DNA of 64,000 bases from Scardovia inopinata JCM 12537. Lineage in GTDB: Bacteria; Actinomycetota; Actinomycetes; Actinomycetales; Bifidobacteriaceae. Shown here piece by piece: positions 51,866-60,400 of this stretch. Location: positions 310,001 through 374,000 of the forward strand of contig NZ_AP012334.1 of assembly GCF_001042695.1 (NCBI RefSeq). Direction: 5' to 3'. The notes below the pieces were generated by a model. That model saw nothing but the letters and a program-made list of their open reading frames with translations. It made no database searches and was not told where the DNA came from. The number at the start of each line of letters is the position of its first letter. Position 1 is the stretch's first letter. Made by a program: the position numbers and the translations under genes.

Positions 51866-53123
51866 GAACAGAATCCACAGTATCTGCCGCATCTTCCTGA
51901 CTTTCCCTGTAACGGCCGATTTTTAAGGCAATGCGGAGAGAATAAGCCTCGTCAGGATTCATGGGGTCCCACCCGGTCAGCTCAGTTGCCCGTCTCAGAC
52001 GGTAACGAACTGTATTAGGATGAATAACCAGATCTTGCGCTGTTCTATCCAGAGAGCTGTTTTTCAAGAGAAAATGTTCCACAGTGGGAAGGATCTCATT
52101 CCTCTTACCAGAATTCTTCAGAATCTTATAGATGTTGTATAGCTGATCTGAAGCGACTGAATCCCCAAAAAGTACCCGATCGGCAACAATATCATCGGCG
52201 TAGAGAGGGTGGGGAGGGTCGATTTCCATGACACTGGCAAAAAAGCCGTTGTACGCAGCTCTTAGGCTATGAGAAGCTCCTGTATACCCCTGCGCTCGCG
52301 GTCCTACGCACAGGCAGGCTGACTCACAGAAGAGGGGGGTGATGGTGTGAAGAATGGTCTCAAAATTTTCATCGCTGGGTCCGCCTACTACAACGGTAAA
52401 AATGGAATTAGAATGAGAACCCATAATTACCTCAGCACCTAAATTTTGAACTGCCAGGTGAGCCTGGGCCTGGTGAAACCCAGCCTTCATCTCTGAATGA
52501 GTATCAGCTTTGATTCTGCCTACTGCTGCAAAGAAAATGGTTGAGTCATCCCAGTCGTAGGCGCTCATGCGGGACTGCAGGGACAGGTCCAGGTTTCCTG
52601 ACAGCAGCGCATTGAGTGCCAAACTTTCCTCGCGAGCCATCCACCTGCTGCGAGTTTCAGCGACTTCGGCATACACACTGGCCGCTGAGAAGGAAACTTC
52701 ACGGGAATAGTAGAGAGCGGCTTCGTAATAGTCGCGTTCTTTCCCCTTTGGGGCGACAATATCAATATTTTCGGTAATAATGTCTACCACAATTCTGGTG
52801 GCTTCCAGCACATTAGCCAGGCTGATAGCCCGGGCGGTTTCAATGGGTGCTATGGAGAAGAGATGATCGGCGCTGATTTTCTCCCTCTTCTCTATAGGCT
52901 CAGGTAAATTAGCCCAGTCCAAATAATCGTTGATTGCCGAAAGAATAATGATATCCAGGAATTCTCTTTCCTGATTTCCCAGAACGGGATACCAGTGCGC
53001 AAGCTTATTCATCCGGTTTTTGCTCATGAGTAAGAGCTTTTGGGCTAATTTAGTCAGATGCTCGTCATCTGCAGTGCCTGATTGGTGTACAGATTGGTTG
53101 GTTCTCGTTGTGGTCTGTGTCAT
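51840..53123 (-). CDS. PucR-family transcriptional regulator (C-terminal HTH), 427 aa
   Basis: A large single-chain regulator. The C-terminal helix-turn-helix is clear: SLDRTAQDLVIHPNTVRYRL then RRATELTGWDP (about 370-400). The central part (EVIMGSHSNSIFTVVVGGP, ACLCVGPRAQGYTGASHSLR) resembles the CdaR/PucR GGDEF-like domain. The N-terminal part is helical and may sense a metabolite. In Streptomyces a PucR-type protein, FasR, controls fatty acid genes, so a lipid link is possible but unproven here. ATG 53123 is chosen because GGAG is 6 bases upstream; an upstream GTG (53150) has no site. Multiple TGTAG motifs lie in its upstream region. Confidence 0.85.
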   Translation of the reverse strand: MTQTTTRTNQSVHQSGTADDEHLTKLAQKLLLMSKNRMNKLAHWYPVLGNQEREFLDIIILSAINDYLDWANLPEPIEKREKISADHLFSIAPIETARAISLANVLEATRIVVDIITENIDIVAPKGKERDYYEAALYYSREVSFSAASVYAEVAETRSRWMAREESLALNALLSGNLDLSLQSRMSAYDWDDSTIFFAAVGRIKADTHSEMKAGFHQAQAHLAVQNLGAEVIMGSHSNSIFTVVVGGPSDENFETILHTITPLFCESACLCVGPRAQGYTGASHSLRAAYNGFFASVMEIDPPHPLYADDIVADRVLFGDSVASDQLYNIYKILKNSGKRNEILPTVEHFLLKNSSLDRTAQDLVIHPNTVRYRLRRATELTGWDPMNPDEAYSLRIALKIGRYRESQEDAADTVDSVPKLDTRLQ

Positions 53124-53153
53124 CTTGCTCCGTTCATTGCTGGTAGGCACTCA

Positions 53154-53339
53154 CTACAGTGCAGAAACTATTAATTTGTAGAAATCTACAAAAGTCCTTT
53201 CTCTTATAGACTTATTCTTATTGTTCTACAGTATTACTAGGTGAGGAAATTCACTACAGAAGCGGATTTTTAGTTGGCAATATTGAGATAATGCACAAAA
53301 TTGTGCATATTTATCGTTATAATAAATTTAATTTTGTAG
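53154..53339. promoter_or_regulatory. Operator cluster upstream of the PucR gene
   Basis: Two perfect 8-AA-8 palindromes, TTTGTAGA-AA-TCTACAAA (53175-53192) and ATGCACAA-AA-TTGTGCAT (53291-53308), lie in the AT-rich gap. CTACA/TGTAG pentamers occur at 53154, 53177, 53186, 53226, 53254 and 53335. They probably regulate the PucR gene, perhaps by its own product. Confidence 0.7.
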
Positions 53340-53365
53340 ATTTTAACATATTTGCTAATTAGTAG

Positions 53366-54553
53366 CTAACGGTCTTTGCAGGGCAGAAAAGCATATAAAA
53401 GCCATTGGCCCCCTTCTCTGCTCCAGCTAAGAGAACCTCCCAGGCTTGTGATCAGCTGCCGGTGCATGGTCAGTCCCTTCCCTGAAATCTCAGGCTCAGG
53501 CAGAGCTACGGTTTCGTGGGCATCGTTTAGCTGGCGGATTTGGACCCCCTGCTCGTCAAAAGTCACAAATAAATCGAAGGAGTGAGGCCCTGGCACTGCA
53601 TGCCTCTGAATGTTTGTAAATATTTCTGCCAGCAGTGATTGAAGAGCGTCGTATGTTTCTTTCCGGAATGACGGCTCCAGCTCTGTAATCTGAATATTTC
53701 CCTTATATCCCAGCTTCGCATGATGTGCCTGCAGGCAAGCAAGATAGGTTTTTAAATCATTGCCGCATGGTGGTTTTTCACTATTGTCCGATTCTTTTTG
53801 CGAATCTGTGTGAGAAAGGAGGGAAATAATTTCGTGGATATGGCGAAAAGCGTCATCTGTCCGTGAAGCCACTAACTGCCAATCAGATACAGACCGGTCG
53901 GTGTGGTTAATCTCTGGTCCTCCTTTGTCGCCGGTAATGTGACTATTTGCCAGAAGAGAAATATCAGAGAGAGCGTTTGTCAGGGAGTCATGAAGGCGAA
54001 TGGCAAATTTATTGCGTGTTTCCAGATTTTTGAGTCTTTCCAGGTCGAGTAACTCTCTGCTCCTGCGCTGCTGAGCTGCAATTGCTTCCTGATGCTGTTT
54101 AAGAGCAATGCCGGAAAGGAAACAAGTTATGCACAGAATGACTGCTGTAATCCAGTATATAAATTCCCATCTTTGAGTAATCAACTCGATGCCGCTGTGA
54201 GCCAGAACAGTTGCAGCAAGGGCAAAAGCTGATTCGGCCAGAGAGCACATGTAGGCAAGAATTCCCAGGGCAACCATTTCTGCAGACAGAAGGAATGGCT
54301 GGTTATTGCCTTCAGCAAAAGGTGCCATACAGGCCAGGACCAGAATTATCCATGAAGCCTGTCTGGGGAAAGCAGGAAGGAATAAAAGAGCAAGAAAATA
54401 ACAAGGATAGAGGCACCAGAAAATGATATACGGTGATGCAATTTGTATAATTTCAATGACGGAAAGAATGATTGACAGGATAGATAAAGTGATAACCCAA
54501 TTATGCTGTGTATATTTTTCAATAAATATTGTTTTGAAATGATGCATAGTCAT
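53366..54553 (-). CDS. Sensor histidine kinase (HisKA_3 type), 395 aa
   Basis: Autophosphorylates and passes phosphate to the response regulator encoded upstream in the same operon. Residues 18-150 hold five or six hydrophobic segments with little extracellular sequence, so sensing is likely within the membrane. The phosphoacceptor is in RLHDSLTNALSDIS (His188). The N-box reads LLAEIFTNIQRHA. The G box is unusual: where DNGxG is expected I read LNDAHETV. Overlap with the regulator gene is 4 bases (ATGA). Confidence 0.88.
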   Translation of the reverse strand: MTMHHFKTIFIEKYTQHNWVITLSILSIILSVIEIIQIASPYIIFWCLYPCYFLALLFLPAFPRQASWIILVLACMAPFAEGNNQPFLLSAEMVALGILAYMCSLAESAFALAATVLAHSGIELITQRWEFIYWITAVILCITCFLSGIALKQHQEAIAAQQRRSRELLDLERLKNLETRNKFAIRLHDSLTNALSDISLLANSHITGDKGGPEINHTDRSVSDWQLVASRTDDAFRHIHEIISLLSHTDSQKESDNSEKPPCGNDLKTYLACLQAHHAKLGYKGNIQITELEPSFRKETYDALQSLLAEIFTNIQRHAVPGPHSFDLFVTFDEQGVQIRQLNDAHETVALPEPEISGKGLTMHRQLITSLGGSLSWSREGGQWLLYAFLPCKDR

Positions 54554-55218
54554 AGAGGGAAATCCCCTTGTTTGTAGGATAGCCAGGCAGCAATAAGAGC
54601 CCTATTATTTGGTGCTTTCAACTTGTCTGCAGCATGTAACAAATGAGTACGGACCGTAGTACGACTGATATCAAGCTGATCGGCAATAGCAGACATCGGT
54701 ATGCCCTGTGACCACAGATCAACAACTTCTGCTTCACGCGGAGACAAATCACTTGCTTGATTCTCTTTTAATAAGTGGAAAGCCTGCGAAGCCGTGAGGA
54801 AGTGTTCATTCTTATTATCTGCGAAACTACAGGGTAGGGGCCTTCCTGAGGAAACTGATTCTATCGCCCTTGCTATTTCCTGCAGACTGTTTTTATGAAT
54901 CAGGCCCTGAGCTCCTGAATAATAGGCAGGACGCATGAAACGATCAATGGGAAACGAGCTCATCATAATAATGGTGGTCGTAAAATTTTCTTGACGAATT
55001 TCTTTGCAAACAGTCAAACCATTGATGTCTGTCATGGAAATATCTGCCAGGAGTACAGAAGGCGGGTGGTGAGAAGTGCATAATTTTATTGCTGAAGAAC
55101 CTGAGTCGACTGGTTTAAGAATTTCAAACTTATCAAGAATTTTTTGTAATCCGGCAGAAAGTATTGCTAAGGCGAGATGATCGTTATCCATAATCAGGAT
55201 TGTCTTGTTAAGACTCAT
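54550..55218 (-). CDS. NarL/LuxR-type response regulator, 222 aa
   Basis: The receiver domain has DND at the N-terminus (residues 11-13), the phosphorylation Asp in LLADISMTDINGL (Asp59), and the switch lysine in LIHKNS (about Lys109). The LuxR/NarL helix-turn-helix follows: LSPREAEVVDLWSQGIP, MSAIADQLDISRTTVRTHLL. It is the first gene of the pair and lies divergent from the peptide and ABC exporter genes. It should act on the palindrome at 55294-55315. ATG 55218 has only a weak AAAGGA site. Confidence 0.92.
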   Translation of the reverse strand: MSLNKTILIMDNDHLALAILSAGLQKILDKFEILKPVDSGSSAIKLCTSHHPPSVLLADISMTDINGLTVCKEIRQENFTTTIIMMSSFPIDRFMRPAYYSGAQGLIHKNSLQEIARAIESVSSGRPLPCSFADNKNEHFLTASQAFHLLKENQASDLSPREAEVVDLWSQGIPMSAIADQLDISRTTVRTHLLHAADKLKAPNNRALIAAWLSYKQGDFPL

Positions 55219-55293
55219 ATCAGTAGATTCCTTTTAATTCGCGTCCTTAGCCATACTGCTTATTCTACTCAGCAAGAAGATAAGAAGAGTGCG

Positions 55294-55315
55294 TTATCCT
55301 CACTTTTGAGGATAA
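55294..55315. promoter_or_regulatory. Perfect palindrome, probable response regulator site
   Basis: TTATCCTCA-CTTT-TGAGGATAA, 9-base arms and 4-base centre, in the divergent region between the response regulator and the peptide gene. Its centre lies about 49 bases upstream of the predicted start for the -10 TATACT at 55342-55347. Confidence 0.65.
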
Positions 55316-55398
55316 AGATATACATAAAAAATAATCCTAGTTATACTACAAGAACATGCTGTAAGGCGTGAAAGTATTCATTTATGAAAGGAGATGAA

Positions 55399-55461
55399 AT
55401 GAACGTACAAGTACAACGTGTCCCAATTGATGCTGCTCACGTTTCATGGGCTGTATTTTAG
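55399..55461 (+). CDS. 20-residue peptide, possible signal or exported peptide
   Basis: A complete 20-codon frame starting with ATG 55399 and ending with TAG. The best Shine-Dalgarno site in the area, AAAGGAG (55387-55393), is 5 bases before the ATG. The product starts MNVQVQRVPIDAA and ends with the hydrophobic HVSWAVF; it has no Cys and no signal peptide. It is flanked by a divergent two-component system and a downstream ABC exporter. This layout suits a peptide pheromone, a small RiPP precursor, or a translated leader. It matches no family I recognise. A start at 55384 in frame would add five residues. Confidence 0.55.
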   Translation: MNVQVQRVPIDAAHVSWAVF

Positions 55462-55567
55462 GGATTACTAAAATAATAAGTTCTAGATTTCCTATGAAGT
55501 GGAAATGGAAACTATCACGACTGGGAGATCTTTAATTATTATAACGATAGAAAAAGAATGTGAAATA

Positions 55568-56533
55568 ATGGCAACGAGAGCTACAAGCCTGAATAATTTA
55601 TCTGTTTCATCTCTGTATAAACGTTATAGAGGTAGTAAAAAATATGCTTTGGAGGATGTCACTTTTTCGCTTTCCCCAGGTACCATAACAGGGGTTCTGG
55701 GCCATAATGGAGCTGGTAAATCTACACTTTTGGGCTCGATTGTAGGCAGTGTAAAAGTATCTTCCGGCAGGGTTGACTATGGTGGTGAAAATCTCACTGA
55801 GTCTCCCCGACGTGCAAGAGAGATATGCGCTTTTATGCCGCAGTCATATGTTCCTCTGACGGGGGTTACTCCTGCAGAAGCATTAAGCTGTGTGACCGGT
55901 ATGAGGGGACTGCCTTCTTCCAGAGGGGAAGCCTATGTGCACGAGTTTATGGAAGCTCTCGATATTTCTGAATACATGGATATCCCTGGCGACAAGCTGT
56001 CTGGAGGGTGCCACAGGCTGGTGTCTCTGGGAATGGCGGTTGTCCAGCACTCCAAAGTAATTCTCCTGGACGAACCTACCAATGATGTGGATCCCATTCG
56101 CAGAAAGTTGTTGTGGACTTTGCTCAGGCAGCTTGCAGATCAGGGGAGTTCTATACTTGTTGTTACTCATAACCTTGAAGAAATACAGGCAGTTGCAGAT
56201 ACTCTTCTCGTGTTTGATCAAGGCCATTTATTGGTAAACTCAACTCCGCAGGATTTTGCTGCCTTATCTGAACTGACTTATTTTACGGTCAATGGGAATT
56301 ATCCTCGTGAACGACTGCTTCGTTTGCCCTTGGTGAATATTCAGCATAACGGGAATGATATGGTTCTCAGCTGTCCCAAGAGCGAGGGAGGAATAATAAT
56401 GCAGCATTTAGCTGAGGCCTTCAGAGAAGACAAATCGCTGACTTTCTCTGTCTCTCAAGGAACCATTCAAGAAGCTTATGAACAGCTTGTCGGGAAAGAA
56501 ACCGAAAGTAATATAAATAAATTAATGGTATAA
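55568..56533 (+). CDS. ABC transporter ATPase (ABC-2 exporter), 321 aa
   Basis: Walker A is LGHNGAGKSTLL, signature LSGGCHRLVSLGMA, Walker B VILLDEPTNDVD, switch VVTHNLEE. The C-terminal third (residues 220-320) is less conserved. It pairs with the permease that starts 18 bases later. The family serves peptide, lantibiotic and drug export or immunity. ATG 55568 is chosen because the ABC fold begins soon after it; a frame from GTG 55499 adds 23 residues without ribosome site support. The 106-base gap after the peptide includes a weak ATTTCC/GGAAAT hairpin. Confidence 0.9.
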   Translation: MATRATSLNNLSVSSLYKRYRGSKKYALEDVTFSLSPGTITGVLGHNGAGKSTLLGSIVGSVKVSSGRVDYGGENLTESPRRAREICAFMPQSYVPLTGVTPAEALSCVTGMRGLPSSRGEAYVHEFMEALDISEYMDIPGDKLSGGCHRLVSLGMAVVQHSKVILLDEPTNDVDPIRRKLLWTLLRQLADQGSSILVVTHNLEEIQAVADTLLVFDQGHLLVNSTPQDFAALSELTYFTVNGNYPRERLLRLPLVNIQHNGNDMVLSCPKSEGGIIMQHLAEAFREDKSLTFSVSQGTIQEAYEQLVGKETESNINKLMV

Positions 56534-56551
56534 ATTGAAGGGAGATGTGCA

Positions 56552-57283
56552 ATGCGGTTAATGAGAAGTTGGTCACTGACCAGATGGAGTTTTCTTAGGC
56601 ATAGGTTTCTTTTTGTGTCTTTCACTCTTTTGCAGACTATGTTTGCCCTGGCGATCGTTTACGGGCTGACCATTATGATTGACATGACCGGAAGTAATTC
56701 TATGGCAGACATCAATACCGGGGTATGGCAGCTTTGTCTTATAACTATTGGCTGTAATCTTGCTCCTCAGATGATGGCAGGCTCTATAGAGGAAGGTTTT
56801 ATGGAGTATCAAAGGAATCTGCCGGTATCCAGACTGGGAATTCTCCTATCTGATTGGGTTATTTGGACACTGGTTTCTGCACCAGGAGTTGTGGTGGCAA
56901 TTTTGGCTGGATGGCTGAGGTTCCGTCTTGTTCCTCATCATATTTTTCTTCTTGCAGTGGCCCTGATCTGCTGTATGATCAGCAACCTTGCCTTTGGTTA
57001 TACAGTTGCTTTATGGTTTTCCAAAGATACAGTAACGATTCTAGGCCAGGCCATCATGTTCATAGCAATGCTTTTCTCCCCTATTCTTTATTCGGCGGAT
57101 AAGCTTCCCCCGGCGATTGTGAAATTTCATAACTGTCTTCCTTTTGTTCCTATGCATAGGATTATTAGTGCACTCGCTTTTCCGGAAACGGGAACTGTTC
57201 AGAGAATGGACTGCCTGATTGTTGCCCTCTGGTTCCTGCTCTGCTTCTCTATTTGCATGGCCGGACTGTACAGGAGAAAATGA
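56552..57283 (+). CDS. ABC-2 type permease, 243 aa
   Basis: Six hydrophobic segments, from LFVSFTLLQTMFALAIVYGL and CLITIGCNLAPQMMAG to IVALWFLLCFSICMAGLY, with the loops expected for ABC-2 exporters (EYQRNLPVSRLGIL, which is the typical interface helix). AGGGAGATG lies before the ATG. Together with the preceding ATPase it makes a two-gene exporter. Cargo unknown; the neighbouring 20-residue peptide is a candidate. Confidence 0.88.
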   Translation: MRLMRSWSLTRWSFLRHRFLFVSFTLLQTMFALAIVYGLTIMIDMTGSNSMADINTGVWQLCLITIGCNLAPQMMAGSIEEGFMEYQRNLPVSRLGILLSDWVIWTLVSAPGVVVAILAGWLRFRLVPHHIFLLAVALICCMISNLAFGYTVALWFSKDTVTILGQAIMFIAMLFSPILYSADKLPPAIVKFHNCLPFVPMHRIISALAFPETGTVQRMDCLIVALWFLLCFSICMAGLYRRK

Positions 57284-57413
57284 AGGCCGTGTGTGCCTGT
57301 GACTGTGACTATTCTCTGACTACGGGCAGCTGCCTTGTATCTTTACCGTGATATGCTTTTCTGTTCCGGAAGGAAAGATGACCGGACTGGAAAATTGAGG
57401 CAAAGGGGCGGCT

Positions 57414-60400
57414 GTGGGTATAAAAGTCACTCAGGGGCAGGCATATCAGGATGCTTATGCCCTGATTCAGGATGCCTGCTCCCGGCAGCCGGGAAGCGAA
57501 TCAGGACAAGCTCTGGTAATTTATGGCCCTCCCAACAGTTCAAAAACCAGCCTTGCTCTGAGGCTTTCCCTGGATGCGCTGAAAATTCTCAGCAGTCAGG
57601 AGGGAAGGGGACAGCAGGAACGGTTAGCAGTGTCCTCCCGTCACGCCCAGTCTGTGGCCCTGGTCACGTCAACAGGCCGACATACCAAGGAAGCCAACCA
57701 AGTTCTCCTGGATAACATTGCTGTTTCTGCTAAACCCAGAATTGCTCAGACTATCAATGCTTTAGCCTTTGGTCTGCTGTCTGCTGTTCGTTCCAGCCAG
57801 GGTCTTACTCCTCCCAAGTACCTGGATGCGGCGGATCAGGATGCTCTTCTGCACCATCTCATGGAGGTACATAAATCACATGCGCAGAGTGGCGATTTAT
57901 GCTCTACCTGCATGCTTTTGCAGGAATTTCTGAAGGAAACATCCTACCAGTCAGGAGTGCAGGCAGACGGTTTTGGTGACTTTGCTGATTCTGTGAGTCC
58001 AACAGACGCAAATTTAGCCTACACGGATTCCGGCCAAACAACGAGTGACCTTTTTTCCCGCCAGCTTAATGATGATTTTGCTGATGCTCTCCGCTCTCTT
58101 TTTGCCCGTATGAATGAAGTCGGTGCTCATCATGGAGTCCAGAAAACGATTGTGAATTTGGCTGGAAACGGCTCCAATCTGCGCCTGCGCTATGCTTGGG
58201 AAGTGGCTTTTGCCCTCAGACAGGAGTATGCCCAGGCAGTGGAAGAGTTAAATGAGCGCCGGGGAAAATTCAATGTTGACAGCTCCTATCTGCTGATTCA
58301 AGCTCAGCGATCTCTGATGCGCCTGCAGGAAGCTGGTCAGTTGGATAGGATTCAACAGTTTCTTCCTCAGGTCGTGATTGTGGATGACGCCCAGGATTTA
58401 ACCCTGGCAGCTGCCGCCTTCCTGGGGCAGCTACAGGCGTCTGGGGCCAGCCTGATTCTGCTAACATGTCCGGATGAGGCTGCCCAAACCTTCCGTGGCT
58501 CGTATCCTGAATACTTGAGCACAATCCTTAAAAAAGAGCCCTTCTTTGCTCAAGAACAGACTCTGACCACTCCCTCTGTCGGCGGCAGCCAGTCCAACCG
58601 GTCTCTTGATGCCCTGGCGGCAGCCATCAGCTTGTCTATCATCTCGCCAGTGCAGTTGGAGGAATCAGTGGCATCCAGACCCTGGAAAATAAGCAGGGAT
58701 CCTGACTGCCCTCTTCCTGTGCCGGATTCCTCTTTTGCTGCTTTGTGGTACCCAACAGCTGAAGATGAAAGTCAGGCTGTTATTGATTCTCTCATGGAAC
58801 GGCATCTGGGCCGGGACAAAATCCCCTATGACAATATGGCCATTATTGCCCATGACAGTGCAGACGTTGATACTTATGCGGCCGCCCTTAGGCAGAGGGG
58901 AGTTGCTGCCCGTGTGACCCAGGTGGGAACCCCGCTGGCTCAAAGTCCGGCAGTCAATGGTTTGTTTTCCATGATTCGTCTTTGCCAGATTAGCAAAAAG
59001 CCTATGGAAGAACAATTGTCTGCACTTTCCCTGAACCGTTTGTCACGTCGGGTGCAGTCTCTGGCAACTGCTCTCCTGGATGGACCGTATGCCTATGCGG
59101 CTGGATCTTCTGGAAGAAAAATTCGGGCTGGATCGGTGTGTACTGTGCTTACTGCTGTCAGTGATATGGTGAATTTCGCCAGTCATAGCCGGCAGGCTGG
59201 GACAGATAGCACTGCTTTAAGCCATGAGACTCATGAGACTTCAGAGCGCCAGACATCTGATTACCGTCAGGCTGATCTTGTCTCGAATCCCTTGGACTGG
59301 ATACAGGAGCAAGTAAAAACCTTGTCTGATTTATCCAATCAATTGGCACCGATTCGAGCGCAAAAACAGTCTTCTCTGGGGTACACAGCCTTGTCTGAAA
59401 CTGTCGACCCCAGCAGCTCCTCAGAGACCTCCGTGGATTCTGACCCTTCCCTTCTTTTGCTGATTTTGCTAACAACAGGGCAGAAAGAATTCACAGCCCT
59501 CTCTTCCTTTATTCGCAATACCAGCAGTCGTACAGCCAAGCACAGTTGCAGTGATTTCCTTGATTTAATTGACCGCTGCAGAAGAATTTCCCTGAATCCA
59601 CGCCTGAGAGTGATAGATATTGTGCAGTCAGCTTGGACTCAATCCGGTCAGGCAGATCGGTGGAAAAATCTGGCCCGGCAGTCGGAAGAACAGACTGCCA
59701 GAGCCGGAGCCAATGAGTGGCTGGACACTTTGGTTCGTCTCTTTACTGAGGCTGAGGCTACGCAGAAGTCTCTAACCTCGATCGATGATTTCATGGATCA
59801 CGTCAGTGGACAGGACATTGCTGCCGACTCCCTGGCAAGGAAAGCTCCTGTAGAGAACGCGGTCACCGTCTTAACTCCGGCTGCAGCTGCCGGAGAACAC
59901 TGGGATTATGTCTGGCTGGTTCACGTTCAGGATGGGATCTGGCCTAATCTGACCCTGCGTGATCAGCTTTTTGCTGCTGATGATTTGACTGATGCCATGC
60001 TTCAAGGGCGAATTTTTGAGCAGGATCAGCGCTACAGGGAGCATGTTTCTGCTGTTTTACAGAATGAAAAGAAGAGTTTCCTTATTGCCGTTACCAGAGC
60101 CAGGAAGGCTTTGTCCATCAGCGCTGTAGCCAACGACAAGGACAGCCCGTCGGATTTCTTTGCAGTCTATATGCCACAAGGAATCGTCCCTGCCCACAGA
60201 TCAGAAAGTTCCCAAAGAAGCGAAAAGGCAGGGTCAGAAGCCGACAGTGTGTCCTATCCGGTCTCTGATTGTCCAGTTTCTGATCGCGGCCTGGTGGCCC
60301 GCGCTCGCAGTTTGGTTTCTGCCGAGCTGGCACAGCGTCTTGTCTCCGGTGCTTCTGGCGCTCCTGGTGCTCCTGGCACCAGCCCCGTTCAGACGGCCGG

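What the first reader, a model, noticed from the sequence alone, without database searches (positions are those of the whole stretch)
55219..57283. Two-component system facing a 20-residue peptide gene and an ABC exporter
Seen: a histidine kinase/response regulator operon runs left, and a strong ribosome site (AAAGGAG) drives a 20-codon peptide gene that runs right, followed by an ABC-2 exporter. The peptide has no signal sequence, Cys or known motif and ends in a hydrophobic HVSWAVF. A perfect 9-4-9 palindrome is shared between the two sides. Known: quorum-sensing, immunity and RiPP loci often combine a peptide, a sensor kinase with many membrane helices and an exporter. Inference: this could be a new short-peptide signalling or export system in Bifidobacteriaceae.
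Basis: partly seen in the sequence, partly recalled or inferred. Interest (0 to 1): 0.75.

Follow-up and report, generated by a model that had tools for sequence, protein, structure and literature searches.

The report
Orphan RiPP peptide with sensor and pump
A 20-residue peptide gene between a sensor system and a membrane pump looks like a distant cousin of a precursor that relatives probably turn into a ring-shaped peptide, but this genome shows no ring-making enzyme, so it may be a stripped-down antibiotic-or-signal locus that kept its sensor, switch and pump.

Summary
In detail: genes, ribosome site, 20-codon ORF and perfect 9-4-9 palindrome are there. Two other genomes of the family carry the same sensor, regulator and transporter and, in the same slot, a 20-residue ORF (MDVEIERAETVEATSWWILF / ...WWILL), then a ThiF/MccB-like enzyme, a putative membrane metallopeptidase and a second ABC pair. 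A Niallia plasmid has the same order with MKKVTVRRATKVEATTWWIII. These resemble the published enterofaecin ("WWIII") ThiF RiPPs. The window peptide scores 25 against the first; the next of 765 short ORFs scores 9. No ThiF domain over cut-off, no relative of the peptidase-like protein and no second permease was found in the window genome. Two same-genus species have sensor and pump but no similar peptide. The palindrome is at this spot in 5 of 5 loci, 28-30 bases before a possible -10. Most likely this is an enzyme-less derivative: a sensor-driven immunity pump with an orphan precursor. That the unmodified peptide is a linear pheromone remains open. A leave-one-out profile did not find the peptide, so homology rests on position, length and pairwise score.

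The parts
53366..54553 (-). sensor histidine kinase; about six membrane helices (inferred from the model), DesK-like catalytic part
   Evidence: ORF; H/N/G boxes invariant in 5 aligned homologues; predicted fold and DesK as best PDB match; no Pfam hit over cut-off
54550..55218 (-). NarL/LuxR-type response regulator
   Evidence: Pfam Response_reg and GerE; 51-54% identical in 4 of 4 relatives
55294..55315 (.). palindrome TTATCCTCA-CTTT-TGAGGATAA, presumed regulator-binding site
   Evidence: TCCTCAN4TGAGGA with at most 1 mismatch at the matching place in 5 of 5 loci
55342..55347 (+). TATACT, presumed -10 element of the peptide-ABC promoter
   Evidence: 5 of 6 consensus matches; hexamers begin 29-31 bases after the palindrome in all five loci, but with only 3 of 6 matches in G001, G149, G117; listed by the promoter scan, where 4 sites were found against 1.9 expected
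55387..55393 (+). ribosome-binding site AAAGGAG
   Evidence: sequence
55399..55461 (+). orphan precursor-like peptide MNVQVQRVPIDAAHVSWAVF
   Evidence: same slot and length as MDVEIERAETVEATSWWILF in G149 and ...WWILL in G117
55499..55509 (+). GTGGAAATGGA, 11 bases shared with the ABC start of the complete G149 locus; possible deletion scar
   Evidence: as long or longer in 6 of 5000 dinucleotide shuffles; suggestive only
55568..56533 (+). ABC transporter ATPase, corresponding to ATPase 1 of the complete loci
   Evidence: Pfam ABC_tran; 48% to ATPase 1 and 29% to ATPase 2 of G149
56552..57283 (+). ABC-2 permease, corresponding to permease 1 of the complete loci
   Evidence: Pfam ABC2_membrane; 70-71% in G001/G002, 47% in G149, 37% in Niallia

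Best explanation
This is a stripped-down locus derived from an enterofaecin-type ThiF RiPP cluster. In complete relatives the short precursor would be bound by a ThiF-like enzyme, its C-terminal carboxylate adenylated and cyclised near the Trp, perhaps trimmed by the putative membrane metallopeptidase, and exported by ABC pairs; a two-component system would sense the product. In the window genome the enzyme, the peptidase-like protein and permease 2 were not found. What stays is sensor/regulator, operator, precursor-like ORF and ABC pair 1. Most likely the kinase detects a cyclic peptide of this type made by neighbours (or its membrane effect), the regulator binds the palindrome just upstream of the peptide-ABC promoter, and the induced pump gives immunity; the peptide stays unmodified, an orphan precursor. 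Shown: gene order, sequence similarity, failure to find the enzyme genes, palindrome conservation. Inferred: translation of the peptide, regulator binding and activation, immunity role of pair 1, the ligand, the chemistry in the relatives, and loss in the window rather than gain in the relatives.
For: Same order (divergent TCS | palindrome | 20-aa ORF | ... | ABC-permease) in G149 and G117, with a ThiF-like enzyme (376 aa), a putative metallopeptidase and a second ABC pair added. Same order, the palindrome not being tested there, in a Niallia taxi plasmid with a GHKL/LytTR two-component system. The peptide aligns without gaps to G149's; M1 V3 R7 A13 W17 are invariant over four sequences; score 25, next of 765 ORFs 9; 18 of 100000 letter shuffles reach 25. 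The enzyme resembles MccB and PaaA (one search agrees but rests on a poor model) and has R167, K180 and D225 in its own numbering, the residues and numbers named for EnfB in PMC12250964 (EnfB itself was not at hand to align). No ThiF domain over cut-off in G000, while 14 of 14 controls ring, 11 over the cut-off; no relative of enzyme, peptidase-like protein or permease 2 in G000, with G149 and G117 as positive controls. TCS and pump without a similar peptide in G001 and G002, as an immunity module would be. Palindrome in 5 of 5 loci where about 0.002-0.003 per 350 bases is expected from each genome's own count. Module lower in GC (0.39-0.46) than most of its flanks (0.49-0.52).
Against: A profile made without the window peptide does not pick it out of the window (E 44, 39th of 3415 segments), and against Niallia alone the similarity is weak (score 9; 1.6% of shuffles reach it). 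The 2.8e-11 is circular, since the peptide is in the profile. Core and leader depart from the family: one Trp, not two; VQRV for the (V/I)RKA-type motif. G000 has four short sub-cut-off ThiF matches (E 0.004-0.07). One genome per species was searched, so other strains may carry the enzyme. The palindrome core with at most one mismatch occurs 9-17 times per genome. An intact ORF, ribosome site and palindrome argue that the peptide may not be a mere relic. No data on expression, ligand or immunity. DesK-like kinases can sense membrane state rather than peptides (recalled).
Confidence: 0.6

Rival explanations
1. The unmodified 20-residue peptide (or a C-terminal piece) is itself a functional linear pheromone: exported by the ABC pair, sensed by the kinase, amplifying its own operon. 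The RiPP locus was converted into an enzyme-free signalling loop.
For: Intact ORF, strong ribosome site, palindrome and possible promoter while no enzyme was found in the genome; the TCS faces the peptide gene.
Against: Same-genus species keep TCS and pump without a similar peptide, so the pair can work without it; no Cys and no evident signal sequence (read from the sequence); the kinase is DesK-like by fold.
Confidence: 0.2
2. The peptide is modified after all, by an enzyme unrelated to ThiF, one missed here, or one in other strains, and the locus still makes a cyclic peptide.
For: The Trp at the fourth place from the end, as in IndA NWYFI and EnfA WWIVI, is kept; assembly completeness is 96.9% by the tool's estimate.
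Against: No ThiF domain over cut-off; no relative of the peptidase-like protein or permease 2. In G149 and G117, found by their permease, the enzyme is next to the precursor; Niallia was found by its enzyme, so it does not count here.
Confidence: 0.07
3. The ORF is a regulatory leader: ribosome movement over it controls translation or transcription of the ABC genes.
For: RNA 55354-55620 folds somewhat better than shuffles (z -2.1, 3 of 200).
Against: The similar ORFs of the relatives stand before a ThiF gene, not an ABC gene; amino acids are partly conserved; no Rfam match over threshold in 53000-58000.
Confidence: 0.06
4. Chance ORF with a chance ribosome site.
For: Short ORFs are common; the leave-one-out profile fails; no similar ORF in G001 and G002.
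Against: Score 25 against 9 for the next of 765 ORFs, right slot, right length.
Confidence: 0.04

Closest known systems
Enterofaecin-type (WWIII) ThiF RiPPs, EnfA/EnfB (Wang et al. 2024, ACS Omega; not held; known here only through review PMC12250964, section 17 read)
   Same: Short Cys-free precursor (21 residues for EnfA) ending in Trp plus three hydrophobic residues, ABC transporters, regulators. The Niallia, G149 and G117 loci also have the double Trp, the ThiF-like enzyme and two ABC pairs.
   Different: The window has no EnfB-like enzyme, one ABC pair instead of four transporter proteins, one Trp, and no clear (V/I)RKA motif (G149 and G117 have IERA, so they too depart from it); it is in an actinomycete.
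Indolylamide RiPP IndA/IndF of Streptococcus (PMC12150305, parts 1 and 2 of 3 read)
   Same: Trp at the fourth place from the C-terminus, the residue joined to the C-terminal carboxylate in IndA (core EDTTNWYFI).
   Different: Longer precursor, M16 peptidase, IndF enzyme present; none found in the window.
Microcin C (MccB) and pantocin A (PaaA)
   Same: The enzyme of the complete relatives is similar in sequence to MccB and PaaA.
   Different: Different precursors and products; enzyme not found in the window genome.
DesK/DesR two-component system
   Same: Kinase fold and NarL-type partner.
   Different: Paired with a peptide-ABC operon, not a desaturase (role of DesK/DesR recalled).

Membership tests
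Enterofaecin-type (WWIII) ThiF RiPP | ThiF-like adenylyltransferase with leader-binding domain beside the precursor | tested here: not met
   None in the locus; none over the PF00899 cut-off in the genome; no match to P0007 at E 10. A ThiF enzyme stands beside the precursor in G149, G117 and Niallia; their leader-binding domain is supported only by the PaaA match from residue 5.
Enterofaecin-type (WWIII) ThiF RiPP | precursor of about 21 residues ending WWI(I/V)I or similar | tested here: not met
   20 residues, ends SWAVF: second Trp kept, first replaced.
Enterofaecin-type (WWIII) ThiF RiPP | leader motif (V/I)RKA | tested here: not met
   Window VQRV; G149 IERA; Niallia VRRA. The V/I and R of those three line up.
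Enterofaecin-type (WWIII) ThiF RiPP | four transporter proteins | tested here: not met
   Only the pair that corresponds to pair 1; no relative of permease 2 in G000.
Enterofaecin-type (WWIII) ThiF RiPP | quorum-sensing-like regulator genes | tested here: met
   Divergent two-component system with conserved palindrome; that it senses a peptide is inferred.
Enterofaecin-type (WWIII) ThiF RiPP | cyclic or amidated product | not testable with these tools
   Needs mass spectrometry.
Indolylamide (Ind) RiPP | Trp four places from the C-terminal carboxylate | tested here: met
   W17 of 20. Weak alone: 19 of 765 ORFs have it.
Indolylamide (Ind) RiPP | IndF-like enzyme and M16 peptidase | tested here: not met
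   No ThiF domain over cut-off; no such genes in the locus; an M16 gene elsewhere was not sought.
SHP/Rgg or PapR pheromones | cytoplasmic Rgg/PlcR-type receptor next to the peptide | tested here: not met
   Neighbours are a TCS and ABC genes; the gene left of the kinase is PucR-type. An Rgg gene lies about 65 kb away.

The most novel reading that the evidence does not exclude
A RiPP locus has lost its maturation enzymes and been rewired into an enzyme-free signalling loop, in which the unmodified 20-residue former precursor is exported by its old pump and read by its old kinase.
Probability: 0.2. Interest if true: 0.75.

Novelty: new variant of a known kind. Interest (0 to 1): 0.5.

Why it matters
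If right, it extends enterofaecin-like ThiF RiPP loci to Bifidobacteriaceae and gives a graded series in one family: complete cluster (G149, G117), peptide without enzyme (window), sensor and pump alone (G001, G002). That makes it testable whether the TCS-pump pair is an immunity module against such cyclic peptides, and whether these peptides are signals, which the review read here offers only as a suggestion. No paper in the listings seen describes such loci in Bifidobacteriaceae (searches; open-licence library only).

Tried and rejected
Peptide search in 99 genomes, own included, with the single sequence: besides the window itself only three hits (E 0.075-0.43), each inside a frame of 118-800 aa, taken as chance. 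Profile search in 189 family genomes: 91 of 189 list something at E up to 5; three strong hits (G149, G117, own), then nothing better than 0.02; own, G149 and G117 are all rows of the profile, so those hits are circular and only the lack of further ones is informative. Leave-one-out profile on the window: failed. Phylum scan for the enzyme at 1e-50: 0 of 396, with no known positive in the draw, so it says little. Class scan: 11 of 394 at 1e-30, only G387 close (41%); no precursor recognised there. Genome-contig scan with the permease: 1 relative, S. wiggsiae. Viral-contig scan: none. Phages: 6 records, partial ThiF matches (28-56% of the query). Second exact palindrome core in the genome (430655) lies inside the end of an Rgg gene: probably chance. 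Enzyme model was poor (mean pLDDT 52.8); nothing is claimed from its N-terminal fold. PADLOC hits look generic (ATPase and E1 models). Scar idea kept as suggestive only.

Position of the module. Window ORFs of 100 codons or more from 40-64 kb find, in the stretches fetched beside the module of the 4 relatives (about 7-16 kb a side), only the module itself and paralogous ABC ATPases. But G001 genes 2-6 kb right of its module match window genes at 11-14 kb, the best at 79-80% identity, some 40 kb left of the window's module, so rearrangement within one region is as good a reading as a move; I no longer infer transfer from this.

Names: G002 has the contig length of Scardovia wiggsiae F0424.

Full report
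What is there. The window holds, from left to right, a histidine kinase (53366-54553, -), a NarL/LuxR-type response regulator (54550-55218, -), a perfect 9-4-9 palindrome (55294-55315), a ribosome site, a 20-codon ORF (55399-55461, +), an ABC ATPase (to 56533) and an ABC-2 permease (56552-57283). The kinase has no Pfam match over a cut-off, but its H, N and G boxes are invariant in 5 of 5 aligned homologues and its predicted fold matches DesK best.

Relatives. The permease has a match in 5 of 189 family genomes, the window's own included. G001 and G002 (same genus) have kinase, regulator, ATPase and permease but no similar peptide between them: the best-scoring ORF of 10-45 codons there scores 5 and -8. 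G149 and G117 have the same four genes and, between regulator and ATPase, a 20-residue ORF with a ribosome site (MDVEIERAETVEATSWWILF; last residue L in G117), a ThiF-family enzyme of 376 residues and a membrane protein with an HEFGH motif and only sub-cut-off Pfam matches (Peptidase_M50 at E 0.32); a second ATPase and permease follow the first. A plasmid of Niallia taxi has the same order with a GHKL/LytTR two-component system and the precursor MKKVTVRRATKVEATTWWIII; its peptidase-like protein has an HEYMH motif, no Pfam match over cut-off, and is 27% identical to that of G149 over the aligned part.

Is the window peptide homologous? Aligned without gaps to the G149 peptide it has 6 of 20 identities and several like-for-like changes. 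Its score, 25, stands alone among 765 distinct ORFs of 18-22 residues from the window and five other loci, where the next best is 9; 18 of 100000 shuffles of its letters reach 25. It sits in the same slot, after the same kind of palindrome, before the corresponding ABC genes. Against this, a profile of the other three peptides does not find it in the six-frame window (39th of 3415), and its match to the Niallia peptide alone is weak. I take homology as likely (about 0.9), on score and position together.

The enzyme was not found. No ThiF domain over the cut-off is seen in the window's genome (one contig, 96.9% complete by the tool), only four short sub-cut-off matches, while 14 of 14 control genomes ring, 11 of them over the cut-off. 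Searches with the enzyme, the peptidase-like protein and permease 2 find nothing in the window genome and do find G149 and G117. G001 has two other ThiF-like matches (2.6e-22 and 3.3e-4), not close ones. The retained ABC pair corresponds to the first pair of the complete loci (48% and 47% to G149 pair 1; 29% to ATPase 2).

The switch. TCCTCA-N4-TGAGGA with at most one mismatch lies upstream of the regulator in 5 of 5 loci (G149 and G117 are nearly the same sequence, so four independent cases at most). Such sites occur 9-17 times per genome, which gives about 0.002-0.003 expected in 350 bases. A possible -10 begins 29-31 bases after its end in all five: TATACT in the window, TATAGT in G002, and a weaker TAACCT in the other three. 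This would put the site about 50 bases before the start of transcription of the peptide-ABC operon; binding and direction of control are inferred.

What it works like. The complete loci resemble the enterofaecin (WWIII) type described in PMC12250964 section 17: a 21-residue precursor with WWIVI, an MccB-like enzyme in which R167, K180 and D225 matter, four transporter proteins and quorum-sensing-like regulators. The Trp position also equals that of IndA, where the Trp indole is joined to the C-terminal carboxylate (PMC12150305), while the review gives a macrocyclic imide for enterofaecin; which ring the Bifidobacteriaceae enzyme would make is unknown.

Verdict. The window locus is not a member of that family by test, because enzyme, double Trp, leader motif and second pump were not found, but it is best read as derived from one. 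The series complete locus, peptide without enzyme, sensor and pump alone suggests that sensor and pump are worth keeping without the product, as immunity is; the direction of change is inferred, no tree was built. The module has lower GC than most of its flanks. Its neighbours differ between species, but G001's right-hand neighbours match window genes some 40 kb from the module, so transfer is not shown. That the peptide frame, ribosome site and palindrome are intact leaves room for a second life as an unmodified pheromone (0.2).

Noticed in passing
L080:4835-5785 (G001:C1, near 421000): A second, different ThiF-family gene (317 aa; Pfam ThiF 5.1e-37) followed by transporter-like ORFs in a same-genus species: candidate RiPP locus of another type.
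   Followed up: partly
L052:5608-8073 (window genome, about 429600-432100): An Rgg regulator gene (Pfam Rgg_C 6.7e-44) followed by an MFS transporter in a Bifidobacteriaceae genome; an exact copy of the palindrome core (TCCTCAAAAATGAGGA) lies inside the end of the regulator gene. No search was made for a cognate short peptide.
   Followed up: partly
L030:4543-4819 (Priestia koreensis plasmid): Three tandem copies of a 21-codon ORF MKKIVVRKLATVTVPQLRPGT with ribosome sites just before a ThiF-like gene: likely multi-copy precursor of another ThiF RiPP.
   Followed up: no
L029:4861-4920 (Sporosarcina plasmid): 19-codon ORF MKIRKLSNKQVSKTAVEPR with a strong ribosome site before a ThiF-like gene and an ABC pair.
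   Followed up: no
L013:2084-2160 (G149): An inverted repeat (GCGGTGACG...CGTCACCGC) between precursor and enzyme gene, seen by eye; possibly an attenuator setting precursor excess.
   Followed up: no
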